From contig PQAM01000014.1 in NCBI GenBank assembly GCA_003104975.1, positions 1 to 64,000 of the forward strand: a stretch of DNA of 64,000 nt. The letters run 5' to 3'. Of the stretch, positions 10,946 through 29,913 are shown piece by piece. The notes under the pieces were generated by a model, which made no database searches, was not told the DNA's origin, and saw only the letters and a program-made list of their open reading frames with translations. A program made the position numbers and the translations under genes. Source of the DNA: Candidatus Methylomirabilota bacterium. GTDB taxonomy: Bacteria; Methylomirabilota; Methylomirabilia; Methylomirabilales; Methylomirabilaceae. Every line of letters begins with the position of its first letter. Position 1 is the first letter of the stretch.

Positions 10946-11593
10946 ATGCGGCTTGTCCTCCTGGGACCGCCGGGCGCTGGCAAGGGGACACAAGCCAGGC
11001 TGCTGACGGCCAAGTGTGACGCCGTGCACGTCTCTGCCGGCGATCTCCTGCGGCAAGCCGTTGATGATGGCTCAGAATTGGGCCGGACGGCGAAGTCGAT
11101 TATGGCGCGGGGAGCGCTCGTCCCTGACGGTATCGTCATCGGGATCATCGAAGAGCGGTTGAAGAGGCGGGATTGCGCGAGCGGTTACATCCTGGATGGG
11201 TTTCCCAGAACGCTGCGACAGGCTGAGGCGCTGTCAGAGGTTCTTGCGCTGCTGCGCGCGCCGCTCGATTGGGTCATCAGCATGGAGGTATCCGAGGATG
11301 ACTTGGTCAGACGGCTTGCCGGCCGTCGAATTTGTCGGACCTGTGGGTCGATGTTCCACGTTGATACACGGCCGCCGGTGCGGTCCGGGTTGTGCGACCA
11401 TTGTGGGGGGCCGCTCTTTCAACGGGACGACGACAGGGAGGATACGATCCGTCATCGACTCAGGGTCCACCGGGAGCAGACCGAGCCGCTGATTGCCTAT
11501 TACGAGAAGTTAGGGCTACTGAGACGCATCGACGGTCATGGGACGATTGAGGAGATCGCTCAGCGCATCGATCAGGTCCTGGGGATTCGGTAG
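10946..11593 (+). CDS. adk: adenylate kinase, zinc-lid type
   Basis: Catalyses ATP + AMP = 2 ADP. The 215-residue product has the P-loop GPPGAGKGT (residues 7-15), the DGFPRT motif and the long LID domain. The LID carries two Cys pairs (CRTCG and CDHCG), so it should bind structural zinc. It lies 6 bp after secY and before map, a common arrangement. Confidence 0.97.
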   Translation: MRLVLLGPPGAGKGTQARLLTAKCDAVHVSAGDLLRQAVDDGSELGRTAKSIMARGALVPDGIVIGIIEERLKRRDCASGYILDGFPRTLRQAEALSEVLALLRAPLDWVISMEVSEDDLVRRLAGRRICRTCGSMFHVDTRPPVRSGLCDHCGGPLFQRDDDREDTIRHRLRVHREQTEPLIAYYEKLGLLRRIDGHGTIEEIAQRIDQVLGIR

Positions 11594-11600
11594 TACGGCG

Positions 11601-12380
11601 ATGATGATCCTGAAGGCCCCGTGGGAAATCGATCTGATGCGGAAGAGCAGTCGGATCGTCGCCGAAACGTTGAGCAGGCTGACGGCACTGATAGAGCCGG
11701 GACTGACGACCCTCGAGTTGGATCGGTTTGCAGAGGCGTATATCCTGAGGCGAGGGGGAAAGCCGGCGTTTAAGGGCTATCGCGGCTATCCCTATACGCT
11801 CTGCGCGTCCGTCAATGAGCAGGTGGTGCACGCGTTCCCGTCGGCGAGGCGGCTGAAGGAGGGTGATATTATAAGCCTGGATCTGGGAGTGGTCGTTGAT
11901 GGGTATTACGGGGATGCTGCCGTGACGGTTCCTGTGGGACGGGTATCCGCAGAGGCCGAGCGTTTGATCGCGGCAACTCGAGGCGCGCTGACGAGGGCGA
12001 CGGCGGTCGTACGGTCCGGCAATCACCTCTCGGATATCTCGCATACCGTACAGTCTACGCTCGAGGCCCAGGGCTTTTCGGTTGTTCGCCTGTTTGTTGG
12101 TCACGGGATCGGCCGGTCGCTACACGAGGAACCGCAGATCCCGAACTTCGGACCGCCGGCCCAAGGCCCTGTCCTGAAACCCGGGTTGGTGCTTGCCATT
12201 GAGCCGATGGCGAATGTCGGGACCTCGGATGTGATGATCCTTGATGATCACTGGACGGCCATCACATGCGACCGGTCGCTGTCGGCCCATTTCGAGCATA
12301 CTGTTGCGCTCACCGAGGCTGGCGCGCAGGTGTTGACCGACTTCGCCGAATACGAGGCCGTTGAAGGTGCGGGTCGCTGA
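11601..12380 (+). CDS. map: methionine aminopeptidase, type I
   Basis: Removes the N-terminal Met from nascent proteins using two metal ions. The 259-residue product keeps the ligands: Asp in [12 protein letters not shown], His in [12 protein letters not shown], Glu in AIEPM and Glu in HFEHTV. The frame is open from 11538 inside adk, but ATG 11601 (or 11604) fits the family. Its stop overlaps the infA ATG. Confidence 0.96.
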
Positions 12381-12598
12381 TGCCGAAGGAAGAGGCGATT
12401 GAGGTTGAGGGGACCGTTATCGAGCCTTTGCCGAATGCGATGTTTCGGGTAGAGCTGGAAACGGGACACAAGGTGTTGGCGCATATCTCCGGTAAGATGC
12501 GCATGCATTTTATTCGAATACTGCCGGGAGACAAGGTTATCGTGGAGCTCTCTCCATACGACCTGACTCGAGGGCGGATCATTTACCGCTATAAGTAA
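12380..12598 (+). CDS. infA: translation initiation factor IF-1
   Basis: OB-fold factor that occupies the 30S A site during initiation. The 72-residue product is exactly the usual size and shows [38 protein letters not shown] and the C-terminal RIIYRYK. It overlaps map by one base and precedes rpmJ. Confidence 0.97.
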
Positions 12599-16076: not shown

Positions 16077-16117
16077 GGTGCCCTTCCCGGTTCGTTCGGG
16101 AAGGGCACCGTTGCTTT
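16077..16117 (+). terminator. intrinsic terminator of the S10-spc-alpha superoperon
   Basis: GGTGCCCTTCCCG (16077-16089) and CGGGAAGGGCACC (16097-16109) form a perfect 13-bp stem with a 7-base loop, followed by GTTGCTTTT. It lies 186 bp after rplQ and before the rhs locus, separating core from accessory transcription. Confidence 0.9.
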
Positions 16118-16255
16118 TACTGGGACCGCGCCGCCAAAGTTTTTCCCCACCCCGACCTCCTGTTTCCACTACCCCCATCGTTCAACGCTATACCTCATCT
16201 TTAATCCGAACAAACTAGTATAAGTCTTAATTCACTACTAGTGCATATTTTTTAC

Positions 16256-16284
16256 TTGACGTGCTTGGAGTGAGCATGTAAAAA
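16256..16284 (+). promoter_or_regulatory. candidate sigma70-type promoter for the rhs gene
   Basis: TTGACG (16256-16261, 5 of 6 consensus), a 17-base spacer and TAAAAA (16279-16284, 4 of 6) lie about 100 bases upstream of the rhs start, in a locally AT-rich patch. The -10 match is modest, so this is a prediction only. Confidence 0.4.
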
Positions 16285-16380
16285 GCTCGGGAAGAATGGT
16301 CCGGCGTCGAATAGAGTCTGGTCTGGTGCCGTAGCAACGTCTGCGTTCGTTTCACACGGAAGCCTGTGGAGGGACCGGTC

Positions 16381-19300
16381 ATGATCCTGATCCGGAGGGT
16401 TCGACGGGCGGCGCAGGCGACAACCCGTGTAGCCTGCCGGAGGCCGGCGCTTCTCGTAGCCGCGCTCCTGGCACTCTTCATCGCCGGCACGGCCGCGTTT
16501 CTCGGTCCGCTTTGGGCCGCTCAAGGCATCATCAGGACGATCACCCCATCGGCAGCCTACGTCGGCGATCAGGTCACGATCGAAGGCCACGGCTTCGGTG
16601 CCCACAACGTCCAGATCACCGTCGGAGGCCTGGCAGCCCAGGTCCTCTCGGCGACCGGCCACTCGGCCACCTTCCTTGCGCCAACGGGTGTTCACCCCGG
16701 GCCTACCACCGTGACCGCCACCAACCCCGGCGGCCGATCCGGCAGCATCGCCTTCACCGTCCTCGACCACCCGCCCGTCGCGAATGCCGGCCCCGACCAG
16801 ACCGTCTTCGTCACCGGCACGGTCCAGTTCGACGGCTCTGCCTCCTCCGACGCCGACGGCGACCCGCTGACCTTCCACTGGACGTTCGTCTCGGCCCCAG
16901 CAGGCAGCACCACGACGCTGTCCGATCCCACAGCGGTGCGCCCCACGATCCTCATCGATCGCCCGGGGACCTATGTCGTCCAGCTACTCGTCAACGACGG
17001 CTACACCGACAGCGCGCCCGACACCGTCCAGATCGGCACGCTCAACTCGCGCCCGGTGGCCGACGCCGGCCCCGACCAGACCGCCCACATTGGCAGCCTC
17101 ATCCAGCTCGACGGCGCCGCCTCCTCCGACATTGACGGTGATCCGCTGACCTACGCCTGGACCTTCGTCACCACGCCAGCCGGCAGCCAGGCCACCTTGA
17201 TGGACGCGACCACAGCGCATCCCTCCTTCGTAGCCGACCTCCCGGGTCGCTACGTCGCAGGACTGATCGTCAACGACGGCGCCCTTGACAGTAAGCCGGC
17301 CGCGGTGCAGATCGACACCTATAACTCTCGCCCGGTGGCCGACGCCGGCCCGGATCAGCAGGCGACCGTCGGCGACACCGTCCAACTCGACGGCAGTTAC
17401 TCCTCCGACGTGGATGGCGATCCTCTGACCTACCGGTGGTCGTTGACCACGATTCCCACCGACAGCGCGGTGAGCCTGCTCGATCTCACGACGGCGCAAC
17501 CGACCTTCGTGCCAGACCTCCCCGGCGATTACGTCGGACAGCTCATCGTGAACGACGGCTTCGAGGACAGCCTGCCTGACACCGTCGCCATCAGCGCAAC
17601 GCCCCCGCCAAATCGGCCACCCGTGGCCGGGGATGATGCCGCCGTCACCGACGAGAACGCCGTAGTCGGCATCGCCGTCCTGGGTAACGATAGCGATCCC
17701 GACGTCGATCCGCTCACGATTACGGCCGTCACGCAGGGAACCAACGGCGGGACGGCCACCATCAACGGCGTCACCGTCACCTATACTCCGCCAGCCAACT
17801 GGAGCGAGACCGACAGTTTCACTTACATCATTACCGACGGGCGCGGCGGGACGGCCACGGCCACTGTGACCGTGACCGTCAACCCCGTGAATCACCCCCC
17901 AACGGTGACGTTGACAGCGGACCAGACGGGCGGTGCGCCGCCTCTCACTGTCACCTTCACCGCTACCGCCAACGATCCGGATGGCGATCCCCTAACCTAC
18001 GCCTGGGACTTCGGCGACGGGACGACAAAACCAAATGGCAGCGCGAGCGAAAGCCACACCTATCAGACCGCCGGGAGCTTCACCGCCACCGTCACCGTCT
18101 CGGACGGCACGGCGACTGCCCAGGCGAGCCTCACCATCACCCCGTCAGTCGGGCCTCCCGATCCCAGTACCGTGGCGCCGCCTCTATCGCAGACCTCTAC
18201 CACCGATCTCGGCAGCGGGACCGCGTTCTTGTACTCCGGCTCCAATCCGATCCAGACCGGCGTGGCCCCTGGGACGATCACCCCCATACGGGCAGCGGTC
18301 CTGCGCGGCCGGGTCTTCAATGACCTGGGAACGCCGCTCCCCGGCGTGACGATCAGCATTCTCAATCACCCGGAGTTGGGCCAGACCCAGAGCCGCGCCG
18401 ATGGTTGGTTCGACCTGGCCGTCAACGGCGGCGGGCTGCTGACGGTCACGTACACGCTCGGCGGATTTCTGCCCGCCCAGCGCGGCGTCGACGTCCCCTG
18501 GCAGGACTTCGCCATCCTGCCTGAGGTCGTGATGGTCCCTCGTAATTCGCAGGCCACGACGATAGACCTGACAGCCCCGATACCCATACACGTCGCGCAG
18601 GGCAGCGTGGTTACCGACGCCGACGGCACCCGGCAGGCCGCGCTGCTGATCCCGCAGGGGACGCAGGCGCAGGTCCTGCTCCCTGACGGGAGCACCCAGG
18701 CGGTGAGTAGTCTCACCCTGCGGCTGACGGAGTACACCGTGGGACCTGACGGACCCAAGCGGATGCCCGCCCCCCTGCCGCCCACCAGCGCCTACACCTA
18801 CGCGGTGGAACTGGGCGCCGATGAGGCGATCGCCAAGCTCGGCGGCAAGGACGTCCTCTTCAACCAGCCGGTCTTCTTCTACGTGGACAACTTCCTGAAC
18901 TTCCCGGTCGGCATTCCCGTGCCGACGGGCTACTACGACAACAGCTGGGGCGTATGGGTGGCGTCCGACAGCGGTCGGATCATCAAGATCCTCAGCGTCA
19001 CCGGCGGTCTGGCCGACCTGGACACCGATGGCGACGGCCTCGCCGACAACGGTCTGGGGATCAGCGATGCCGAACGGGCGCAACTGGCCTCACGTTATGC
19101 GGTCGGTACCAGCCTGTGGCGTGTGCCCGTGTCGCATCTCTCCACCTGGGACTGCAACTGGCCTCCCTCGCCGCCACAAGACGCGGAAACCCATCAAGGG
19201 CCGGCTCCCACGCCGGACCCCCAACCCAACAAGCCCAACCAATGTGAAGGCTCCATCGTCGGCTGCCAGAACCAGACTCTCGGGGAGGCGTTGCCCGTGG

Positions 19301-22300
19301 CCGGGACGCCGTTTTCGCTCTATTACAAGAGCGACCGAGCGCCGGGCCGCACCGCGGCTTACAGCGTGGACATCACCCTCAGTGGCTCCTCCGTCCCCGC
19401 CAGCCTGAAGCGAGTCGATCTGGAGGTTTTGGTAGCCGGGCGGCTCTTCACGCAAAGCTTCCCATCGAATCCGAACCAGCGCACGACCTTTACCTGGGAC
19501 GGTCTAGATGCCTATGGTCGACCGGTGCAGGGGCAATATTTGGCGACGGTGCGGATCGGATACGTGTATGACGAGGCCTACCAGGTGACGGATCGATTCG
19601 GCTCTAACGGGAACGGGATTCCCATTACCGGCAGCCGCGCACGCCGCGAGGTGACGCTGTGGCGGACCGACACAGTCAGGATCGGCCCATGGGACGCCCG
19701 TGGCCAGGGGTTGGGTGGCTGGACGCTAAGCGCGCATCATGCGTATGATCCTCTGGGCAAAGTGCTCTATCTGGGGAATGGCAGCCAACGTAGCGCAAAC
19801 AGTATTCACCATACGATTACCACTGTGGCCGGAACGGGAGGCGCCGGCTTCAGCGGCGATGGTGGCCCGGCTACCCAGGCTGGTCTTAATTGGATTTACG
19901 ACGTCGCCGTAGCTCCCGACGGCAGCCTCTACATCGCTGATGGGGGTAACCATCGCATTCGCCGGGTGGGGCCGGATGGGATGATTACGACCGTAGCTGG
20001 TACGGGATATTGGGGCTTTAGCGGCGATAGCGGTCCGGCCACCCAGGCTACCCTGTATTGGCCTTCCGGCGTCGCCGTGGCCTCGGATGGTAGCCTCTAT
20101 ATTGCTGACAGCGGCAACCGTCGCATCCGCCGGGTGGGGCCCGACGGAATAATCACTACCATGGCCGGAACGGGAGCTTTGTTGGGCTCTAGCGGCGATA
20201 GCGGTCCGGCCACCCAGGCTACCTTTAGTGCGGTCGGCGGCGTCGTCGTAGCCCCGGACGGTAGTGTCTATATCGGTGACTCCTATCGAATTCGCCGAGT
20301 AGGACCGGATGGGATCATTACGACCGTGGCTGGAACTGGGCTTGCGGGCTTCAGTGGCGACGGCGGCCCGGCCACCCTGGCTACCCTTCGGGGTGGCAAA
20401 GTTGCCGTAGCTCCGGGCGGTAGCCTCTATATTGCCGACACAGACAACTATCGCATCCGCCGGGTGGGGCCCAATGGGATCATCACCACCGTAGCCGGTG
20501 CGGGGTGGTTTGGGTACCGCGGCGATGGCGGCCCGGCCACCCAGGCTCACCTTGATTGGACTTACGACGTCGCTGTAGCCCCCGACGGTAGCGTCTATCT
20601 CATTGACTACAATCGCGTCCGCCGGGTGGGACTTGACGGGATCATTACCACCATAGCCGGCAAGGGGACTAATGGCTTCAGCGGCGATGGCGGCCCGGCC
20701 ACTGCGGCTACCCTTTATTCTCCTTACGGCCTCGCTGTGGCTCCTGACGGTAGCTTCTATATCGCAGACACCTATAACTTTCGCGTCCGCCGGGTGGGGC
20801 TGCCGCTACCGGGATTTTCAGATTCGGATCTGGTCGTTCCCTCCGAAGACGGCCGTGAACTGTACCAGTTTAATGCGAATGGCCGCCACCTGCGCACACT
20901 CCACGCCCTTACGGTTGCCACGCTCTATACCTTCACCTACGACAGCGAGGGCCGCCTCACCCAGGTCACCGACGGCGACGGCAACGTGACGACCATCCAG
21001 CGAGACGGCAGCGGCAACCCTACGGCCATTGTCGCGCCATTCGGCCAGCAGACGACCCTCGCGCCGGACAGTAACGGGTTCTTGAGTAGCGTCACCGACC
21101 CATCGGGCGCCACGACCCAACTCACCTATTCCCCAGACGGGCTGCTCACCACCCTCACCGATCCCAAGGGGAACGTGCATCACTTCATCTACGACAGCCT
21201 GGGCCGCCTGCTCAAGGATCAGGACCCTGCCGGCGGCTTCCTCACCCTGACACGGACCGAGACAACCAATATGTATAGCGTGGCTGTGACCAGTGCCCTC
21301 GGCCGCACTTCTGCTTTCCAGATCGCGCAGCTCTCGACCGGGGATGAGCGGCGAGTCAACACCGACCCCGCCGGGCTCCAGCGCATGGTGCTGATCAAGA
21401 CCGACGGCACCGAGCAGACGACGAACCCGGATGGGACGATCTCGACGCGAATCGACACCGGCGACCCGCGCTGGGGGATGATGGCGCCCATGCCCAAATC
21501 GCTTACAATTGTCACTCCAGGTGGCCTGACCTTGACCAGCACCAGTACCCGAACCGCGACCCTGTCGAATCCCGACAATTCCTTGAGCCTCACCGCTCAG
21601 GACGATACCCTCGTCCTCAACGGCCGAACCTCGACCACCCACTTCGACGCGGCCACCCGGACCTTCACGACCACCAGCCCCGCAGGCCGCATCAGCACCC
21701 GGATCATCGACCCCCAGGGCCGGACGACCTCCACACAGCTCATCGGCCTCGCGCCAGTGACCATGACCTACGATCCCTTCGGCCGCTTGGCGACCATCAC
21801 CACCGGCACCGAAGCCGACGCCCGAACCACAACCATGACCTACGATGCCAATAGCTACCTCCAATCGATCACCGACTCCGTGGGGCGCGTCACCAGCTTC
21901 ACTTACGACGCTGTCGGGCATCCCCTGACCCAGACCCTCCCCGACGGCCGCGTGCTCCAAACGAGCTATGACAGTAACGGCAACGTGGCGAGCATGATCC
22001 CACCGAGCCGCCCTGCCCACGCCTTCGACTACACGCCCGGGGATCTCGAATCCGCCTACCATCCCCCCTCTCCCCTTGCGGGAGAGGGTGGGGGTGAGGG
22101 GGTCAGCACCACCTACACCTACAATGCCGACCGGCAACTGACGCTGGTGACGCGTCCGGATGGCCAAACGCTGTCGCTCGCCTACGACACTGCCGGCCGC
22201 CTGAACTCGCTCGTCACCCCAACCGGCACGCTCCAGTATGCCTACAGCGGGACCACTGGGAATCTCAGCTCGATTACCGCGCCGGGCAGCACGCTCAGCT

Positions 22301-23898
22301 ACGTCTATGATGGGCCGCTCTTGAAGCAAACGACCTGGAGCGGGACCGTGGTCGGGAGCGTCTCGCAGACCTACGACAATAACTTCCGCATCACCTCCCA
22401 GAGTCTCAACGGCGCGAACGCGGTGACGTTCGGCTACGACAACGATTCGCTACTCACATCCGCTGGCGCCCTCAACATTGCGCGCAACGCACAGCATGGC
22501 CTTATTACGGGTACCACGCTCGGGAGCGTCACTGATACCAGGAGCTATAGCCCCTTCGGCGAACTGAGCACCTACACCGCCACCGTCAGCGGTTCACCCG
22601 TCTTCGCGACGACCTACACTCGTGATAGACTGGGGCGGATCACGCAGAAGGTGGAGACGATCTACGGCAGCACCGATACGTTCGACTACGCGTACGACCA
22701 GGCCGGTCGTCTGACAGAGGTCACGAAAAATGGGACGGTGCTCTCCAGCTACACCTACGATGGCAACGGCAACCGACTGAGCCTGACCACCCCCAGCGGC
22801 ACGGTCAATGGGAGTTACGACGCGCAAGATCGGCTGACGCAGTACGGCAGCACGACCTACAGCTACTCGGCCAACGGGGACTTGCAATCGACGACGACCG
22901 GTGGCCAGGTGACCACGTATCAATATGATGTACTGGGGAATCTTACCAGCGTCGCAGGCCCTGCCGGGTCCACCATCGACTACCTGATCGACGGCCAGAA
23001 TCGCCGGATCGGCAAGAAAGTCAACGGAACACTGACCCAAGGCTTCTTGTATCAGAATCAGCTCAACCCGGTCGCGGAACTTGATGGTGCGGGGAATGTG
23101 GTGTCCCGCTTCGTGTACGGCAGCCGTAGCAACATCCCCGACTACATGATCAAGGGTGGGGTGACGTATCGCATCATCAGTGACCATCTCGGGAGCCCAC
23201 GGTTAGTCGTCAACACCGCCGATGGTAGCATTGCCCAGCAACTGGACTACGACGAGTTCGGCAATGTCCTCACCGACACCCACCCGGGCTTCCAGCCCTT
23301 CGGCTTCGCCGGCGGCCTGTACGATCCCGACACAGGGTTAGTCAGATTCGGCGCCCGCGACTACGACGCGGGGACGGGCAGGTGGACGGCGAAAGATCCT
23401 ATTCGCTTCAAAGGCGGCGATACCAACCTCTACGGCTACGTCCTGAACGATCCCGTCAACTTTGTTGACCCGAACGGACAGTTCGCTTTCCATTTGCATT
23501 TTGGAATTACCTATTTCGCCGCACGAGCTTCAGGGTACGGCGTAAAAGATAGTCTATCGTTGGCATGGAATGTCATGAGCGAGGATCGGAGCGCGCTTAG
23601 CCATGATCCCGATTCAACAAGAGTTCATGCCATGGGCGGTGACTTGGGAACCCGCTATCAAACGCCTGCTGAAGCTATCGCCGCCGCAAAGGCTTACATC
23701 AATGATCCAAGCAATCCGCTCTCCGGAAGGATTCATTCTGCCCAGGACTTGCCGATTCATGCCGGGGAAAGCATGCAAGCTTTCGGCTGGAATTGGTCCA
23801 CGGTCCAGCATCTCTTTAGAGATATATTCGGTGGAGGCGTTATAGGCCAAGCGTATCAAAACACCCGTGCTATTCTAAATGGTAGATGTGGAAAATGA
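16381..23898 (+). CDS. secreted Rhs/YD-repeat protein with TIG, PKD, NHL domains and variable C-terminal tip
   Basis: A 2,505-residue exported protein. A basic start plus hydrophobic stretch (about 22-46, ending LWAAQG) looks like a signal peptide. Then come an IPT/TIG domain (53-125), three PKD domains (130-407), a cadherin-like domain (410-503), a fourth PKD (505-588), a carboxypeptidase-regulatory-like domain (639-726), six NHL repeats starting ITT(V/M/I)AG (about 1144-1475), and YD repeats with the Rhs core ending at [15 protein letters not shown] (about 2338). The last 140 residues are a unique, AT-richer tip with spaced His residues ([19 protein letters not shown]). Rhs shells are known to encapsulate C-terminal toxins; toxicity of this tip is inferred. 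ATG 16381 sits 7 bases after GGAGGG. The last four bases overlap the next ORF. Confidence 0.93.
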
Positions 23899-24521
23899 GA
23901 TTGATCAAACCGATTATTTTATCATCTATATCTATCGCTGTGTTTTTACTAGAGGGTATTATGATGATCAGTGCCGATGAGCCAAGCCTGTCTAAGGCCG
24001 ACGAAGTGCTAATCGCGCCTAATTCAATCGGGATGCCTCTGGGCACAATTTTGCTGATACGGGAAAGCGGGAATTATGGTGCAGTTAAGTTTACTAAATG
24101 CTGGACTGGAAAAACTGATTACGATCAGCATGCAGAATACGAATCTTATTATCAAGGTGATAAGACGGGTGACTTTGGTAAGTCTAATGTGAAGCACCGG
24201 AAAGAGGAGGTCTATTACAAAAAACCAAGCTTCTCTATCTTTGGACACCCTATTAGTATAGGCGATAAAAGGGATATCCGATGCGGTCCTATAGAGCTCT
24301 GGTGGTCGGGTCTTAAGTGCGTAACCACGGTATATTTTAACAGGCACGATCAGAAGCAAGGTGATTACTATGGCATAGAGCTTGCCCCAACTCCTTGGAC
24401 AGATATTTCTCAGGTAAATGTTTTTGACCCACGAATCCGATGGTACAAATACGATGAGAACCGGAAGGATGTGAGTATTCTTGTAGACCGATTATGGGAT
24501 GACAAAGAAGGCAGCCGGTGA
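23895..24521 (+). CDS. small exported protein overlapping the rhs tip; candidate immunity protein
   Basis: Unrecognised 208-residue protein. ATG 23895 shares ATGA with the rhs stop, so translation should be coupled. The N terminus ([24 protein letters not shown]) carries a signal peptide or anchor, so the product probably acts in the envelope. The gene is clearly AT-richer than its neighbours, as is the rhs tip before it. Its stop falls exactly where homology to the rhs core restarts (GATGAGCGCCGGGTCAACAC). In rhs loci the gene following the tip usually encodes the cognate immunity protein; that assignment here is by position only. Confidence 0.75.
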
Positions 24522-26588
24522 TGAGCGCCGGGTCAACACCGATCCCGCCGGGCTCCAGGCCTCGCGCCGGTCAATATGGCTTACGATGCCGTCGGCCGCC
24601 TGGCGGCGGTCACGACCGGCACCGGACCGGATGCCCGCACGACGACCTTTGCCTACGACAGCCAGAGCTATCTCCAATCCATCACCGATCCGCTGGGGCG
24701 CAGCACCACCTTCGCCTACGACGCCGTCGGCCGACCCCTCACCCAGACCCTCCCCGACGGCCGCGTGCTCCAGACCACCTACGATGCTAACGGCAACGTC
24801 ACCGCCCTCACCCCGCCCAGCCGCCCCCAGCATCAGTTCGATTACACACCCGTGGATCTCGAATCCGCCTACCATCCTCCCTCGCCCCTCACAGGGGGAG
24901 AGGGTGGGGGTGAGGGGCTCAGCACCACCTACACCTACAACGCCGACCGGCAACTGACGCAGGTCACACGTCCCGACGGCCAGACGGTAGACGTGGCCTA
25001 CGACACCGCCGGCCGCCTGAGCACCACGGCCTTCTCTCGAGGTCAGGTGACCGACAGCTACAACGCCACAACCGGCAATATCAGCAGCGTGAGTGCTCCG
25101 GACGGGATCAGCCTCGCCTACACCTACGACGGCTCGCTCCTTACCGGCATGACGTGGAGCGGACCCATCGCCGGCAGCGTCAGCCGCACCTACAACACCG
25201 ACTTCCGGGTGGCGAATCAAAGCGTCAACGGGGCCAACCCGATCAGTTTCGGCTACGACGCCGATTCGCTGCTGACGACCGCTGGAGCGGAGACCATCAC
25301 GCGCCGGACGGATAATGGGCTGATCTCGGGGACCACGCTCGGCCCGGTAACGGATAGCCGCAGCTACAACGGTTTTGGCGAGCTGACTACCTACACCGCG
25401 ACCGTCAGTGGCTCCCCGGTGTTCGCCACGACCTACACCCGTGATAAACTCGGGCGGATCACGCAGAAGGTGGAGACGCTCTCTGGCAGCACGGACACCT
25501 TCGACTACGCGTACGACCCTGCCGGTCGTCTGCAAGGGGTTACGAAAAACGGGTCGGTGATATCAACGTACACCTACGATCCCAACGGTAACCGGCTGAA
25601 TCTGACCACCCCCATCGAGACCGTGAGCGGCACCTATGACGGCCAGGATCGGCTGACACAGTACGGCGGGACGACCTACGGCTACTCAACCAATGGCGAG
25701 CTGCAGAGCGCGACGACGAGTGGCCAGACTACGATGTACCAATATGACGTGTTGGGGAATCTTACAAGCGTCGTTGGACCCACGGGGTTCACCATCGAGT
25801 ACGTCGTGGACGGTCAGAACCGCCGAATCGGCAAGAAGGTCAACGGGACGCTGACCCAAGGCTTCTTGTATCAGAGTCAGCTCAACCCGGTTGCCGAGCT
25901 TGATGGGACCGGCGCAGTTATCAGCCGCTTCGTCTACGGCAGCCGCGCCAACGTCCCCGACTACGTGATTAAGAATGGCGTGACCTACCGGATTGTCTCT
26001 GATCACTTGGGATCACCGCGGCTCGTCGTCGATGTCGCCACCGGCAGCGTCGCGCAGCAACTGGCCTACGACGAGTTTGGTAACGTCCTCACCGACACCC
26101 ACCCCGGCTTCCAGCCCTTCGGCTTCGCCGGCGGGCTGTACGATCCCGATACCGGCCTGGTGCGCTTTGGTGCCCGGGATTATGATGCGGAGACGGGGAG
26201 ATGGACGACGAAAGACCCGATCCGCTTTAGCGGTGGCGACACGAACCTGTACGGGTATGTCGTGAACGATCCAGTGAACGAGACAGACCCATTTGGCCTC
26301 TATTGGTTTCGGCAACCTTGGCAAACACCTGGTGTTGTCGGGCGTCTACACACCATAGTTCCGCCAGAGGGCCCAGTCAGTGAGTTTATTGAACAGGATG
26401 TGCCGGCAGGTTATACGTTTGGCGAAATGCATGACAGTTTTGTGGATGCTGCTACCCGATCCGGAATCCCAGATTGGCTAGCGAATATTCCATCAATGAT
26501 CCCTGTATATCCGGTTGCGGTAGGCACAGAAGTATTGAGAGGTCTGGGAATTCTTCCGCAACCGACGCCACCCGCTTTGTGCAAATGA
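24519..26588 (+). pseudogene. orphan Rhs core-plus-tip cassette (N-terminally truncated)
   Basis: Homologous to the C-terminal part of the large Rhs protein (nucleotides about 21344-23480 of it) but lacking signal, NHL and shell start. Its first about 40 bases match position 21344 onward, then it jumps to the sequence matching 21748, an internal deletion of about 370 bases that shifts the frame. The longest frame, 24576-26588, gives 670 residues from ATG with no obvious Shine-Dalgarno sequence. It keeps YD repeats and the core end [15 protein letters not shown], then a different tip of about 100 residues (GYTFGEMHDSFVDAA, GIPDWLANIPSM). Probably a silent displaced tip module that could recombine with the full-length gene. 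Confidence 0.8.
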
Positions 26589-27072
26589 AGAAGCTCAACC
26601 GAATGAGTATCGCGCGAGCCAGCATCGCATTCTCCCTGTTAGCTATGGTTGGCGCCATATTCTTCGGCCGAAGCCACGCAAGCGAAGGGCCGCAGCCTGG
26701 GAATCGATACAAAATCGTCAAACCCGTATACTTGATTGCTGCATATGAAAGCCTTAACAACAGGCAAATCAGCAGAGAGACGGCGTTTGCATATTTGCGA
26801 CCAAGGCAGAGCCCCAAGAGGGCTTGGTTAGCGTTTCAAAGCGAGGTGCCAATAGGTACAATTATGACCATCATTGGCCCGGCACCAAAACCAGCAGTCT
26901 GGCACCTTCCCTTTTTTTCAAGCGCTACTCTGTATACCTTGTCCGATTAGACCCGGACCTGTCGCGTGGTCTTGACGTTATGCTTGAACTTAGTCTTGGG
27001 ATGGAAGGAAGCCTCGATGGGCTGAATCCGGAACTATTTAGCCGGTACAAACACGAAGAGGTCAGCCCCTGA
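26585..27072 (+). pseudogene. frameshifted exported protein overlapping the orphan rhs tip; candidate immunity gene
   Basis: ATG 26585 overlaps the orphan rhs stop as ATGA, exactly as in the first cassette. The first frame gives a 121-residue product with a clear signal peptide (MKKLNRMSIARASIAFSLLA up to about residue 33, SHA) that stops at 26950. At a T7 run (26912-26918) a -1 shift continues into a protein-like frame (KRYSVYLVRLDPDLSRGLD) that ends at 27072, right where rhs-core homology begins again. This suggests a single-base loss or sequencing error in an originally about 162-residue gene. No family recognised. Confidence 0.65.
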
Positions 27073-27240
27073 CCTACGACGCCAGCAGCTATCTCCAATC
27101 CATCACCGACTCCGTGGGACGTGCGACAAGCTTCACCTACGACGCCGTCGGCCGGCCCCTCACCCAGACCCTCCCCGACGGCCGCGTGATCCAAACGAGC
27201 TACGATCTCAACGGCAACGTCACCGCCCTCACCCCGCCCA
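27064..27240 (+). pseudogene. third rhs core remnant
   Basis: A 58-codon stretch reading [17 protein letters not shown] and [19 protein letters not shown] matches YD repeats of the large Rhs protein (about 21838-22010) and of the orphan cassette (about 24650-24830). It begins at the end of the second candidate immunity gene and breaks off after NVTALTPP. It has no start, core end or tip, so it is a decayed third module. Confidence 0.85.
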
Positions 27241-27269
27241 ACTGCCTGGGGCGTATGGCCCGTGGCCCA

Positions 27270-27695
27270 TCAGGGGCGGCGGAGCGTTTCCAGGAAGCTT
27301 TTCAGGTCGGTGATGTTGATGCCGTGGAAGTATTTGAGGGTCCGCAGGTGGGGGTCTCTGGAGACGATGTAGTCGGCGCCGGCTTCCATGGCACAGGCAA
27401 GGAACATGTCGTCGGTAGGGTCATCCGAGACCTTGTGCACGGTATAGCGGCCTGTGGTGAAGGTCGCCTTTTCCAGAATCAGGCCGATGAACTCGTCGAC
27501 GTCTTCGTCCGAGGCATGGAACTGTTTCAAGATTCGAGGGGAGTGGAGCACGCGGTACAGCTCGGCGATGATTTCTTTGGAGGTGACCAGGATAAAGGCG
27601 CCGTCGGCGATCGTGTCCCGGAGCTCTTTGGCCAAGCCCTCCTTCGCAAAGGCCACGCTGACCATGACGCTGGTATCGATGACGGCCTTACACAC
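27270..27695 (-). CDS. PIN-domain toxin (ribonuclease), COG1569-like
   Basis: PIN nuclease of 141 residues, predicted to cleave RNA with Mg2+. Acidic residues typical of the active site are present: Asp in VIDTSV near the start, Glu in EIIAEL, and Asp in DDPTDDMFL and VSRDPHL. GTG at 27695 overlaps the end of the upstream XRE antitoxin gene by 8 bases, a typical antitoxin-first toxin-antitoxin operon. Its 3' end lies 30 bp from the rhs remnant. Confidence 0.88.
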   Translation of the reverse strand: MCKAVIDTSVMVSVAFAKEGLAKELRDTIADGAFILVTSKEIIAELYRVLHSPRILKQFHASDEDVDEFIGLILEKATFTTGRYTVHKVSDDPTDDMFLACAMEAGADYIVSRDPHLRTLKYFHGINITDLKSFLETLRRP

Positions 27696-28182
27696 GCGCG
27701 TGGGCTTTATCCCTGATGGCGGTCACGGCCTCATCGATGACCTTGTCGATCTCCTCCTGCGAGTAGGCCCTGGCCCCCCTCGCCAGCTTGTCCGTGATCT
27801 CGCGGAAGCGTTGCGACCAGGACTGCTCGGCCTTGGGCCGGATCATCTTCTCAACCTGATGCTTCACGATCACCCCCTCCAGGATGCGCTTGACCGCTTG
27901 CCGTTCCGCCTCGTCTAGACCGGCGATCAGCTCGAACTGCTCTAAGAGCTCACGGTCCAGGAGACGGCTTGCGGCAATCCCTGTCTCCTTGTCGAACGCC
28001 AGCTCATCGATGGAGACCCCCAGGGCTTTGGCCAACCTGACCAGCACGTCTAAGGTTGGGGACGAGTGGCCGGCCTCATAGCGCCGGATTTGCGAGATCG
28101 CCACGCCGCTTCGCTTCACCAGGTCTTCCTGCGTCAGGTGCTTCTCTTTTCTGATCCGTGCTAAGTTCTTGCCGAACGACAT
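27688..28182 (-). CDS. XRE-family antitoxin with C-terminal toxin-binding extension
   Basis: A 164-residue protein. Residues about 7-60 form an HTH_3 domain (KNLARIRKEKHLTQEDLVKR, YEAGHSSPTLDVLVRLAKAL); the C-terminal half is a helical, charged segment likely to bind the PIN toxin. The frame is open farther upstream, but ATG 28182 follows AAGGAGGT at good distance and gives the correct HTH start. It probably autoregulates through the direct repeats upstream. Confidence 0.88.
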   Translation of the reverse strand: MSFGKNLARIRKEKHLTQEDLVKRSGVAISQIRRYEAGHSSPTLDVLVRLAKALGVSIDELAFDKETGIAASRLLDRELLEQFELIAGLDEAERQAVKRILEGVIVKHQVEKMIRPKAEQSWSQRFREITDKLARGARAYSQEEIDKVIDEAVTAIRDKAHARV

Positions 28183-28226
28183 GGCACACACCTCCTTGGG
28201 CAGAGTCGTTGTATGGCTGACTTGTA

Positions 28227-28254
28227 ATACCTCAACAGATATGAGATATACCTC
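28227..28254 (-). promoter_or_regulatory. candidate operator: two direct repeats upstream of the XRE antitoxin
   Basis: Read on the minus strand, GAGGTAT occurs twice (28254-28248 and 28233-28227), 21 bases apart, that is two helical turns, 45-72 bases before the antitoxin ATG in an AT-rich stretch. Spacing on one helix face suits cooperative binding of an autoregulatory HTH protein. Inference only. Confidence 0.35.
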
Positions 28255-28449
28255 TTTAAGTATCTTATCCATTTTCAGGTGGGCGTCAAGGCTTTTCGCG
28301 TGACAGGGGGGTCGGAGCAGTCGACATGCGGATCACCGAAGGCGAGCACAGCCAACGCTGCGTGCCGGATCCCCGCGCAGTGCCTCGAGCCGCTGCCCCG
28401 TTCGACGGATTCCTCTTGCTGTAGCATGTACCCGTGCTCTCGTGGCTTC

Positions 28450-28743
28450 ATGATCCGGTCCTTCGCGGACGACGGTACGGAAGATGTGTTTAACGGCCTG
28501 AATACCAGAGCGGCCCGTCGAGCCTATCCGTATGAACTGTGGCCCGTAGCCGGACGGACACTTGACCAGCTTGATTCCGTGGAACGGTTAGAAGAGCTTC
28601 GGATCCCTCCTGGGAACCGCCTGGAAGCGTTGGCGGGAAACCGCAAAGGCCAACACAGCATTCGAATGAACGAGCGGTACCGGGTCTGCTTCCGGTGGAC
28701 CAGCAAGGGTCCGGCGGAGGTCGAAATCGTAGACTACCATTAA
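28450..28743 (+). CDS. higB: HigB-like toxin (RelE superfamily mRNA interferase)
   Basis: A 97-residue RelE-fold toxin expected to cleave mRNA on the ribosome. It contains the family pattern IRSFADDGTEDVF, RLEELRIPPGNRLEAL and the C-terminal HSIRMNERYRVCFRW followed by VEIVDYH. The frame is open from 28279, but ATG 28450 is the family start. The higA antitoxin gene follows 25 bp downstream, the toxin-first order typical of higBA. Confidence 0.93.
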   Translation: MIRSFADDGTEDVFNGLNTRAARRAYPYELWPVAGRTLDQLDSVERLEELRIPPGNRLEALAGNRKGQHSIRMNERYRVCFRWTSKGPAEVEIVDYH

Positions 28744-28768
28744 TGGGCAGCGTGCAAGGAGAGCAGTC

Positions 28769-29077
28769 ATGGTTCGAGTGCCGACACATCGAGAACCCAC
28801 CCACCCTGGCGAGATGCTCTTGGAGGCATTCCTGACGCCCATGGGACTCTCACAGCGGGACTTAGCCCGTCGGATTCGAGTGCCCTATCAACGGGTCAAC
28901 GAACTGATTAATCGTCGGCGGGGCATCACGCCAGGGACCGCTTTGCGGCTGGCGAAGTGTTTTGGGAACTCTCCGGGCTTCTGGATGAACCTTCAGCTTC
29001 GATGGGACCTCTACCGAGCACGATCGGCCGAAGCAGAGGCTCTTAAGAGAATTCGTCCACTTCGCACTGTAGGCTGA
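28769..29077 (+). CDS. higA: HigA-like antitoxin (XRE HTH)
   Basis: A 102-residue antitoxin. It has the VAPI/HigA start RVPTHREPTHPGEMLLEAFL and an HTH (LSQRDLARRIRVPYQRVNEL). The C terminus carries the typical GNSPGFWMNLQLRWDLYRA block. A short AAGGAGAG Shine-Dalgarno sequence precedes ATG 28769. It likely represses higBA with HigB as co-repressor. Confidence 0.93.
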   Translation: MVRVPTHREPTHPGEMLLEAFLTPMGLSQRDLARRIRVPYQRVNELINRRRGITPGTALRLAKCFGNSPGFWMNLQLRWDLYRARSAEAEALKRIRPLRTVG

Positions 29078-29173
29078 GGTAAGAAAAGGGGAACAGGAAT
29101 TACGTCTGCTCGTGTCGCGCGTTGGTTGTCCTGAGACGGTCACGCCATCTCGCGACCCTTTAATGTTAATGTC

Positions 29174-29202
29174 TTGACAATGGGTCTTCAAATATTCATA
29201 CT
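29174..29202 (+). promoter_or_regulatory. promoter for the CopG-MazF module
   Basis: TTGACA (29174-29179, perfect) is followed by a 17-base AT-rich spacer and CATACT (29197-29202, 4 of 6). It lies 36 bases upstream of the antitoxin ATG. TGTGGTA occurs twice just downstream (TGTGGTAGGCTTGTGGTAT) and could be the autoregulatory operator. Confidence 0.65.
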
Positions 29203-29237
29203 GTGGTAGGCTTGTGGTATGACCATCAGGAGATGAT

Positions 29238-29495
29238 ATGGGCAAAACAGTCAAGATCGCCATTAGCCTTCCTGCGGATCTGCTTGAGGCTTTAGAAAAG
29301 GAGCGTCAGGCCAGAAATGAGAGCCGGAGTCAGTTCTTTCGTGAGGCCGTAGAGCATCTTCTTCGTCAGAAGCGCCTTCAGGAGACCGTAAAGCAGTATG
29401 TGCAGGGTTACCTGGCTGAGCCTGAAAGCGATGAGGAAGTCGCATCCGTACAGCAGGCCAGTATGGGTGCACTCCGTCTGGAAGACTGGTCTTGA
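29238..29495 (+). CDS. ribbon-helix-helix (CopG-type) antitoxin, MazE-like
   Basis: An 85-residue protein whose N terminus is an RHH DNA-binding domain (VKIAISLPADLLEALEKERQ, SRSQFFREAVEHLLR). An acidic C-terminal tail (AEPESDEEVASVQQ) likely masks the toxin. ATG 29238 follows AGGAGAT. Its TGA overlaps the TTG start of the MazF gene. Confidence 0.9.
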   Translation: MGKTVKIAISLPADLLEALEKERQARNESRSQFFREAVEHLLRQKRLQETVKQYVQGYLAEPESDEEVASVQQASMGALRLEDWS

Positions 29496-29809
29496 GACGC
29501 GGTGAGATCTGGTGGGCGGAACTGCCTGCTCCAGCTGGTACTCGACCGGTGGTTCTCTTGTCCCGCGATGAGGCGTATCCGGTCCGCAGGCTGGTGACCG
29601 TGGCACCGGTAACTACCCGTGTCCGCCGCATCGCATCGGAAGTTCCCTTGGGTCGTGAGGACGGTCTGCCCCGGTCGTGCGTGGTGAACCTCGATACGAT
29701 TATTACTATCGCCAAGGACAGCCTTCGAGGGCACGTCGCCAACCTCAGCCAATCGAAACTCAGAGCTGTTGAGGAAGCTCTTCACTTTGCCCTCGGGCTG
29801 GAATGGTAA
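29492..29809 (+). CDS. mazF: MazF/PemK-family endoribonuclease toxin
   Basis: A 105-residue mRNA interferase with family motifs RRGEIWWAELP, GTRPVVLLSRDEA and VNLDTI. The start is TTG 29492, overlapping the antitoxin stop by 4 bases, so translation is coupled. The usual conserved Arg and Thr/Ser catalytic positions (RPVVLLS, VTVAPVTT) appear intact. Confidence 0.93.
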   Translation: MRRGEIWWAELPAPAGTRPVVLLSRDEAYPVRRLVTVAPVTTRVRRIASEVPLGREDGLPRSCVVNLDTIITIAKDSLRGHVANLSQSKLRAVEEALHFALGLEW

Positions 29810-29913
29810 GGGGAATAAGGAGAGGATTTCTCCTTTACAACGGGATGACCGTTGTGGTACGAGAAGAATCTCGGAACGGTGAAGCGGCTTGTGCGGCACA
29901 CAGGGGAAGCGTG

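What the first reader, a model, noticed from the sequence alone, without database searches (positions are those of the whole stretch)
16381..27240. Three-module rhs array with displaced tip cassettes
A full-length secreted Rhs gene is followed by a second rhs-core-plus-tip module lacking its N terminus and by a third core remnant. The cassettes have a consistent grammar: rhs core, unique AT-richer tip, overlapping small exported ORF, then rhs core again. Displaced rhs-CT/immunity modules are known in enterobacteria as reservoirs for tip exchange; this one uses a different, NHL/PKD-bearing scaffold. The core copies differ at roughly one base in five by eye, so the array is old and may be maintained.
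Basis: partly seen in the sequence, partly recalled or inferred. Interest (0 to 1): 0.8.

Follow-up and report, generated by a model that had tools for sequence, protein, structure and literature searches.

The report
Bacterial teneurin with spare toxin tip
A methane-oxidising bacterium carries a large toxin-shell gene, of the bacterial kind related to animal teneurins, followed by a second, headless copy with a different tip and a scrap of a third, as if old tips are kept behind the working gene.

Summary
The array is real. Module 1 (16366-23898) is a 2510-aa teneurin-like protein (TLP) with TTR, FN-plug, NHL and YD-shell domains; its best solved relative is a bacterial TLP (9ifo/9pt5, 1604-1607 bits). 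It ends in a cleavage motif, a 139-aa tip and a small ORF overlapping the tip's stop by ATGA. Module 2 (24515-26950) repeats that grammar without the N terminus, with a different tip and small ORF; 'module 3' is a 174-bp core scar. The two cores are 75.1% identical (dS 0.87, dN/dS 0.21), about as far apart as this TLP and that of another Methylomirabilis species, so this is no recent duplication or assembly artefact. That species carries tip1 and its small ORF on a single TLP elsewhere; tip2 was found in none of the other 94 held genomes of the phylum. I read the locus as a TLP polymorphic toxin with a displaced tip/immunity cassette, like orphan rhs-CT modules of enterobacteria. Tip exchange between strains could not be tested, toxicity is inferred, and neither tip matches a known family above its cut-off. 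In the literature searched I found no displaced cassette on a TLP and no TLP in Methylomirabilota.

The parts
16366..23898 (+). Module 1: full-length teneurin-like protein (TLP): hydrophobic N terminus (by eye), PKD/Ig-like repeats, TTR, FN-plug, NHL, YD-shell, DPxG motif, tip1
16366..17910 (+). N-terminal display part (residues 1-515), 75% identical to the N terminus of a non-TLP rhs protein of the same genome
18289..23478 (+). TLP superfold region, colinear with residues 399-2145 of the Bacillus TLP (PDB 9ifo, 9pt5)
23479..23898 (+). tip1: polymorphic C-terminal domain of module 1, 139 aa, starts just after PVNFVDPNG and ends in CGK
23895..24521 (+). imm1: predicted exported immunity protein of tip1 (ATGA overlap; the mechanical ORF call starts at 23886)
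24515..24558 (+). 44-bp core piece overlapping the stop codon of imm1, homologous to 21338-21381
24558..26297 (+). Module 2 core (3' part of a YD-shell, PVNETDPFG at its end), homologous to 21745-23478; open frame from 24576
26298..26588 (+). tip2: displaced C-terminal domain, 96 aa, no similarity to tip1, ends in CK
26585..26950 (+). imm2: predicted exported immunity protein of tip2 (ATGA overlap), 121 aa; an overlapping frame stays open to 27072, so it may be frameshifted
27073..27246 (+). Module 3: 174-bp core scar, no tip recognised
27270..28272 (-). PIN-domain and HTH genes in the same island (not part of the array)
28279..29809 (+). HigB-like toxin + HTH protein, then RHH protein + PemK/MazF-like toxin, in the same island (not part of the array)

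Best explanation
The locus is a polymorphic toxin system of the bacterial teneurin-like protein (TLP) class with one displaced tip/immunity cassette and one core scar. Module 1 is the working gene: the protein is exported (inferred), the YD-shell encloses tip1, the DPxG site cuts tip1 free inside the shell (inferred from TLP structures), and tip1 acts on neighbouring bacteria, while imm1, exported by the same cell, neutralises tip1 arriving at its envelope (inferred). Module 2 is a former or alternative tip/immunity pair without a scaffold; it cannot be exported as it stands and is most likely a silent reserve that could be joined to the scaffold by recombination within the shared core (inferred). 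How module 2 arose, by a single crossover with an incoming core-tip-immunity piece or as the remnant of a neighbouring TLP gene that lost its head, is left open in this statement.
For: TLP domains in order: TTR 642-723, FN-plug 1003-1071, NHL, YD-shell 1492-2346. 1604-1607 bits to the solved bacterial TLP over about 1730 residues, against 408 for the best animal teneurin. PxxxxDPxG in both modules ([18 protein letters not shown]), and EGS at the FN-plug cleavage loop as in 9pt5. A TLP immunity gene directly downstream is shown by experiment for Methylosarcina fibrata in PMC13018210 (passages). ATGA overlap of tip and small ORF in both modules and in the two other TLPs of the phylum. tip1 84% and imm1 73% identical in G013, together, at the end of a TLP. 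Displaced layout as described in Jackson 2009 and Koskiniemi 2014 (passages). Seven of eight congeners read have the empty site.
Against: No family or fold identifies either tip as a toxin: Pfam, NCBIfam, PADLOC, PHROGs and PDB sequence searches are empty or below cut-off or weak for tips and small ORFs (the lowest E-values are 0.064 for tip1 to DUF6765 and 0.0062 for imm1 to phrog_23901, function unknown). The models of tip1 and imm1 are unusable (pLDDT 44.7 and 33.8); tip2 and imm2 were not modelled. Core identity of 75% is far below the 95% at which main/orphan recombination was shown in Salmonella. No strain comparison shows a swap. imm2 may be broken. The second junction does not fall at the stop of imm2 as called. 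Signal peptides were judged by eye.
Confidence: 0.78

Rival explanations
1. Tandem genes, then decapitation: two (or three) complete TLP genes of diverged lineages lay side by side; deletions removed the N terminus of the second and nearly all of the third. No tip exchange is involved; module 2 is a truncated pseudogene. (This overlaps with the best explanation, which leaves the origin open, so the odds do not add up to one.)
For: M1-M2 core dS 0.87 with dN/dS 0.21 and an open 670-codon frame say that module 2 evolved under selection for most of its history, as a full gene would. The end of imm1 and the core share CCGG.GA at the junction, as a deletion at microhomology could leave. The second junction does not fall at the called stop of imm2. 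PMC13018210 reports genomes with up to four TLPs (section 6).
Against: The first junction falls exactly at the stop codon of imm1, whose C terminus is the same as in G013. Only one FN-plug match exists in the genome, so no second head was found; the DNA search covered only the 3' part.
Confidence: 0.36
2. Module 2 is an active stand-alone toxin/immunity pair that works inside its own cell as a type II toxin-antitoxin, as the title of PMC7043789 claims for Salmonella rhs elements.
For: The frame is open; three toxin-antitoxin-like pairs lie next to it in the island; PMC7043789 (title and start of abstract only).
Against: The small ORF looks exported, which suits an envelope-acting tip; promoter-like matches in 23400-27300 on both strands are near chance level (4 found, shuffle mean 2.5, sd 1.8); the ATG at 24576 has no evident ribosome-binding site (by eye).
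Confidence: 0.08
3. Recent tandem duplication or assembly artefact.
For: Two similar cores in one contig.
Against: 25% divergence; no similarity between the two tips or the two small ORFs.
Confidence: 0.01

Closest known systems
Bacterial teneurin-like proteins (TLP), e.g. BiTLP of Bacillus inaquosorum, PDB 9ifo/9pt5 (PMC13018210)
   Same: TTR, FN-plug, NHL, YD-shell, PxxxxDPxG motif, short polymorphic C-terminal domain (139 and 96 aa here; average about 15 kDa in the paper), small gene immediately downstream
   Different: Followed by a displaced tip/immunity cassette and a core scar; the host phylum Methylomirabilota is not among the six phyla that the paper lists
Enterobacterial rhs loci with C-terminal displacement (PMC2935791) and orphan rhs-CT/rhsI of Salmonella LT2 (PMC3967940)
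   Same: Full gene plus downstream core-fragment + tip + immunity units without start or export signals; AT-richer tips
   Different: There the core copies are reported as always identical within the loci compared (Jackson) or 95% identical over 522 bp (Koskiniemi); here 75% over 1.7 kb, and the scaffold is a TLP
Metazoan teneurins
   Same: Same superfold by sequence (408 bits to teneurin-2)
   Different: The cleavage motif is absent from mammalian teneurins and the C-terminal domain lies outside the shell, according to PMC13018210 (section 7)

Membership tests
Bacterial teneurin-like protein (TLP) | FN-plug, NHL and YD-shell domains together | tested here: met
   All three over the Pfam cut-offs in module 1; 1604-1607 bits to 9ifo/9pt5
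Bacterial teneurin-like protein (TLP) | PxxxxDPxG cleavage motif with an upstream DPx(G/R/L) | tested here: met
   DPIR...PVNFVDPNG in M1, DPIR...PVNETDPFG in M2
Bacterial teneurin-like protein (TLP) | FN-plug cleavage loop with conserved serine | tested here: met
   CEGSIVGC in M1 aligned to CNKEGSIIGA in 9pt5; cleavage itself not tested
Bacterial teneurin-like protein (TLP) | TIP domain in the N-terminal part (96% of TLPs in the paper) | not tested
   No separate TIP search; the alignment to 9pt5 is one continuous match from its residue 399
Bacterial teneurin-like protein (TLP) | Small polymorphic C-terminal toxin and adjacent immunity gene | tested here: inconclusive
   Layout met; toxin and immunity activity not testable here
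Displaced/orphan rhs-CT/immunity module | Core fragment + different tip + small ORF downstream of a full gene, lacking start and export signals | tested here: met
   start and export signals judged by eye, promoter scan near chance level
Displaced/orphan rhs-CT/immunity module | Core copies (nearly) identical to the main gene | tested here: not met
   75.1% identity; best patch 92.5% over 120 bp, 22024-22143
Displaced/orphan rhs-CT/immunity module | Tip attached in one strain and dissociated in another | not testable with these tools
   One genome per species held; tip2 found in 1 of 95 genomes, the window's own
T6SS-associated PAAR-Rhs | N-terminal PAAR domain | tested here: not met
   No PAAR among the 18 Pfam families listed for module 1

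The most novel reading that the evidence does not exclude
Bacterial teneurins exchange toxin tips by keeping displaced tip/immunity cassettes behind the working gene, even when the cores have diverged to 75%, with short well-matched patches serving as the joints, and they also borrow their N-terminal display part from other rhs genes. The exchangeable tips share only an entry rule (DPxG at the front) and an exit rule (a cysteine as second or third residue from the C terminus: CGK, CRK, CK) that lets any tip be tethered by a disulfide to the FN-plug cysteine, as C2216-C719 is in BiTLP.
Probability: 0.25. Interest if true: 0.72.

Novelty: new variant of a known kind. Interest (0 to 1): 0.52.

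Why it matters
Bacterial TLPs are homologues of animal teneurins and were shown in 2026 to be toxin/immunity systems; that paper's main text does not mention recombination, so how their tips are exchanged looks open. A TLP locus with an archived tip would suggest that they use the displacement route of Rhs and CDI systems, and it gives a concrete pair of tips and immunity genes to test. It also adds Methylomirabilota to the phyla in which that paper reports TLPs.

Tried and rejected
Fold of tip1 and imm1: two-sequence alignments gave pLDDT 44.7 and 33.8, so no fold search was run; tip2 and imm2 were not modelled. Tip identity: tip1 has only sub-threshold Pfam matches (DUF6765, E 0.064, residues 11-36; DUF5633, E 0.079); its G013 homologue has none. 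By eye its conserved His and the GRIH..QD...H string recall zinc-dependent phospholipase C/P1 nuclease-like domains; that resemblance is recalled, not tested, and I do not claim it. Homologues of the cassettes: none on 72,556 plasmid records (tip1, tip2, imm1, imm2), none in viral contigs for tip1, one for tip1 in the 84,980 genome species by a scan that finds close relatives, which is the G013-like contig. Recent exchange of tip1 between species: tip dS 0.57 is below 7 of 9 scaffold segments, but imm1 is saturated (dS 3.1) and two scaffold segments are as low (0.47, 0.56), so no exchange is inferred. Mobile-element signs: no tRNA and no Rfam match near the island, no integrase recognised by eye in the ORF list, no direct shared word of 10 to 20 bases between 16081-16400 and 29601-29860. 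Displaced modules in other TLPs: none in the 14-kb G013 contig or in 30.5 kb around a Streptomyces megaplasmid TLP. In G021 a 128-bp, 100% identical core copy lies at the contig edge about 6 kb downstream, joined to another rhs fragment; it cannot be told from an assembly effect.

Considered and rejected: reading G008's rhs genes as TLPs (core matches, translations of two of them; no FN-plug match in G008). The own genome's second rhs (contig 6, L019) matches the module-1 core at 29% and gave no FN-plug match, so it is no TLP, although its N terminus is shared.

The odds of the tandem rival went from 0.33 to 0.36 for that reason.
Full report
WHAT IS THERE. The window is contig 14 of a 3.0-Mb genome in a genus of 15 held genomes. 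The contig that matches tip1 in the named collection has the length of the G013 contig and is titled Candidatus Methylomirabilis sp. isolate Ru_enrich_MO2, so the genus is Methylomirabilis, phylum Methylomirabilota. Module 1 is a 2510-aa ORF (16366-23898) with a hydrophobic N terminus (by eye), PKD and Ig-like repeats, TTR, FN-plug, NHL and YD-shell domains. It matches the solved Bacillus TLP colinearly over about 1730 residues. After PVNFVDPNG comes tip1 (139 aa); its stop overlaps the start of a 208-aa ORF, imm1 (211 aa as called mechanically). The stop of imm1 (24519-24521) lies inside the first bases of a new core copy. That copy has a 44-bp piece, a 364-bp gap relative to module 1 that breaks the frame, then 1.7 kb of core open from 24576, ending in PVNETDPFG, tip2 (96 aa) and imm2 (26585-26950), again with an ATGA overlap. 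A third core piece of 174 bp at 27073-27246 ends without a recognised tip. It begins at the stop of a frame that overlaps imm2 and is open to 27072; whether that frame is the rest of imm2 is unknown. Tip1 and tip2 are not similar (best E 14), nor imm1 and imm2 (best E 0.21).

AGE AND SELECTION. Over 572 codons the cores of modules 1 and 2 are 75.1% identical; NG86 dS 0.87, dN 0.18, ratio 0.21. Module 1 against the G013 TLP gives core dS 1.1 and 0.47-1.69 in nine scaffold segments, against 0.66-1.48 for five chromosomal genes of the same species pair; the first 430 residues were left out of the segment table. So modules 1 and 2 are about as far apart as the species are. With G013 as outgroup, single-site changes are 81 synonymous/71 nonsynonymous on the module 1 branch and 94/111 on the module 2 branch, with 68 ambiguous sites set aside (Fisher p 0.20). 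Module 2 is thus at most slightly relaxed. A neutral simulation of the module 2 core expects 13 stops (11 with transition bias) at half the observed dS, and at 0.1 substitutions per site zero stops occur in only 0.25% (1.5%) of 400 runs. None is present. I infer that module 2 evolved under selection for most of its history and lost its head late, or is still selected.

CONTACT BETWEEN THE COPIES. One patch, 22024-22143, is 92.5% identical (1 of 5000 codon shuffles as high at 40 codons; for the best windows of 30 and 20 codons in the same place p is 0.0014 and 0.0052). For third positions alone the values are weaker: 0.022, 0.084 and 0.047. The patch contains an in-frame copy of a short dispersed repeat, with 18 further matches on other contigs of this genome, shared by both modules but not by G013. 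This is compatible with gene conversion, or with a shared late insertion. The longest exact shared run between the cores is 32 bp.

BOTH ENDS ARE MODULAR. Residues 1-515 of module 1 are 75% identical to the N terminus of a non-TLP rhs protein of the same genome (L019, 391 of 518 aligned positions), whose core matches that of module 1 at only 29%. The DNA match to the G013 TLP begins only at 17617, about residue 418. So the display part too seems to have been joined from elsewhere, somewhere in residues 418-515.

SURROUNDINGS. In 7 of 8 congeners whose locus I read, rplQ is followed directly by the EF-G-like gene; the eighth (G009) matched only on the left side. I read 8 of the 13 congeners with an rplQ match. 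In the window 13.7 kb lie between (16126-29818), holding the array and PIN/HTH, HigB-like/HTH and RHH/PemK-like genes.

RELATIVES. FN-plug matches occur in 3 of 95 genomes of the phylum: own, G013 and G021. tip1 is in 2 of 95, imm1 in 2 of 15 of the genus (not searched wider in whole genomes), tip2 in 1 of 95, imm2 (121-aa frame) in 1 of 95. G013 has one TLP with tip1 (84%) and imm1 (73%), then a transposase-like ORF (by eye), and no second module. G021 has a TLP with a third tip and a membrane-protein-like ORF on an ATGA overlap; tip2 shows no match to its tip. At its contig edge, about 6 kb downstream, lies a 128-bp identical core copy joined to another rhs fragment. This hints at the same process but may be an assembly effect, and that genome is listed with 10% contamination.

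HOW IT LIKELY WORKS. Shown here: the domain layout, the motifs, the cassette repeat, the divergence and the empty site. Established for TLPs elsewhere (PMC13018210; abstract, sections 6-8 and passages read): in BiTLP the shell encloses the cleaved C-terminal domain and the FN-plug is cut as well; three of nine chosen C-terminal domains, and that of BiTLP when given a signal peptide, inhibited E. coli; a downstream gene gave immunity in M. fibrata. Inferred: export, cleavage and toxicity of tip1; an envelope target, because imm1 and imm2 look exported and the G021 partner looks membrane-bound; and silence of module 2. For its origin I give displacement by an incoming tip somewhat under even odds and decapitation of a tandem TLP a little over one third. 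The low core identity speaks for the latter, the clean first junction for the former.

A SIDE PREDICTION. tip1, its G013 homologue and the unrelated tip2 have a cysteine as third, third and second residue from the C terminus (CGK, CRK, CK). The final lysine may owe to the AAATGA overlap with the next start; the cysteine does not. In BiTLP a C-terminal-domain cysteine, 21 residues before the end, is disulfide-bonded to a cysteine just before the FN-plug cleavage site (section 7). Module 1 has a cysteine near that place (CEGS, residue about 960 counted; C-x-x-EGS in BiTLP). The G021 tip ends without one, so the rule is at best regional.

LITERATURE. Jackson 2009 (PMC2935791, abstract and passages) describes C-terminal displacement in enterobacteria with identical core copies of one clade. 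Koskiniemi 2014 (PMC3967940, abstract and passages) shows main/orphan fusion at a locus with 522 bp of 95% identity. The main text of PMC13018210 has no match for orphan, recombination, tandem, paralog or cassette and lists six phyla without Methylomirabilota; its supplements were not read. Searches for teneurin with orphan and Rhs (6 papers, all listed), Methylomirabilis with Rhs (0 papers), and teneurin with polymorphic toxin, immunity and bacteria (15 of 492 listed) showed no title on displaced TLP cassettes; of those I opened PMC13018210 and PMC3150448 only. Poole 2011 (PMC3150448, passages) compares teneurins with Rhs in its discussion. Only open-licence papers are in that library.

Noticed in passing
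window 22065-22101 and 24878-24917: A short dispersed repeat lies in frame inside both rhs cores (read as PPSPL.GEGGGEG); the genome search lists 18 further partial copies on other contigs.
   Followed up: partly
window 16366-17910 and L019 10470-16706: The N-terminal 515 residues of the TLP are 75% identical to those of a non-TLP rhs gene on contig 6 of the same genome; that gene's C-terminal end looks like a lipase-type hydrolase by eye.
   Followed up: partly
window 27270-29809: Three toxin-antitoxin-like pairs in a row (PIN/HTH on the minus strand, HigB-like/HTH, RHH/PemK-like) share the island with the TLP array.
   Followed up: partly
window 26585-27072: imm2 ends at 26950 in its frame, while an overlapping frame stays open to 27072 past a run of T near 26914: a possible frameshift, a sequencing error in a homopolymer, or nothing.
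   Followed up: no
L050 5009-12387: The N-terminal PKD part of the G013 TLP is listed as a separate ORF (11113-12387) overlapping the main ORF start, so that gene may be frameshifted near its 5' end.
   Followed up: no
L071 1-343: A fragment of a different rhs gene is fused to 128 bp identical to the neighbouring TLP core, at a contig end.
   Followed up: partly
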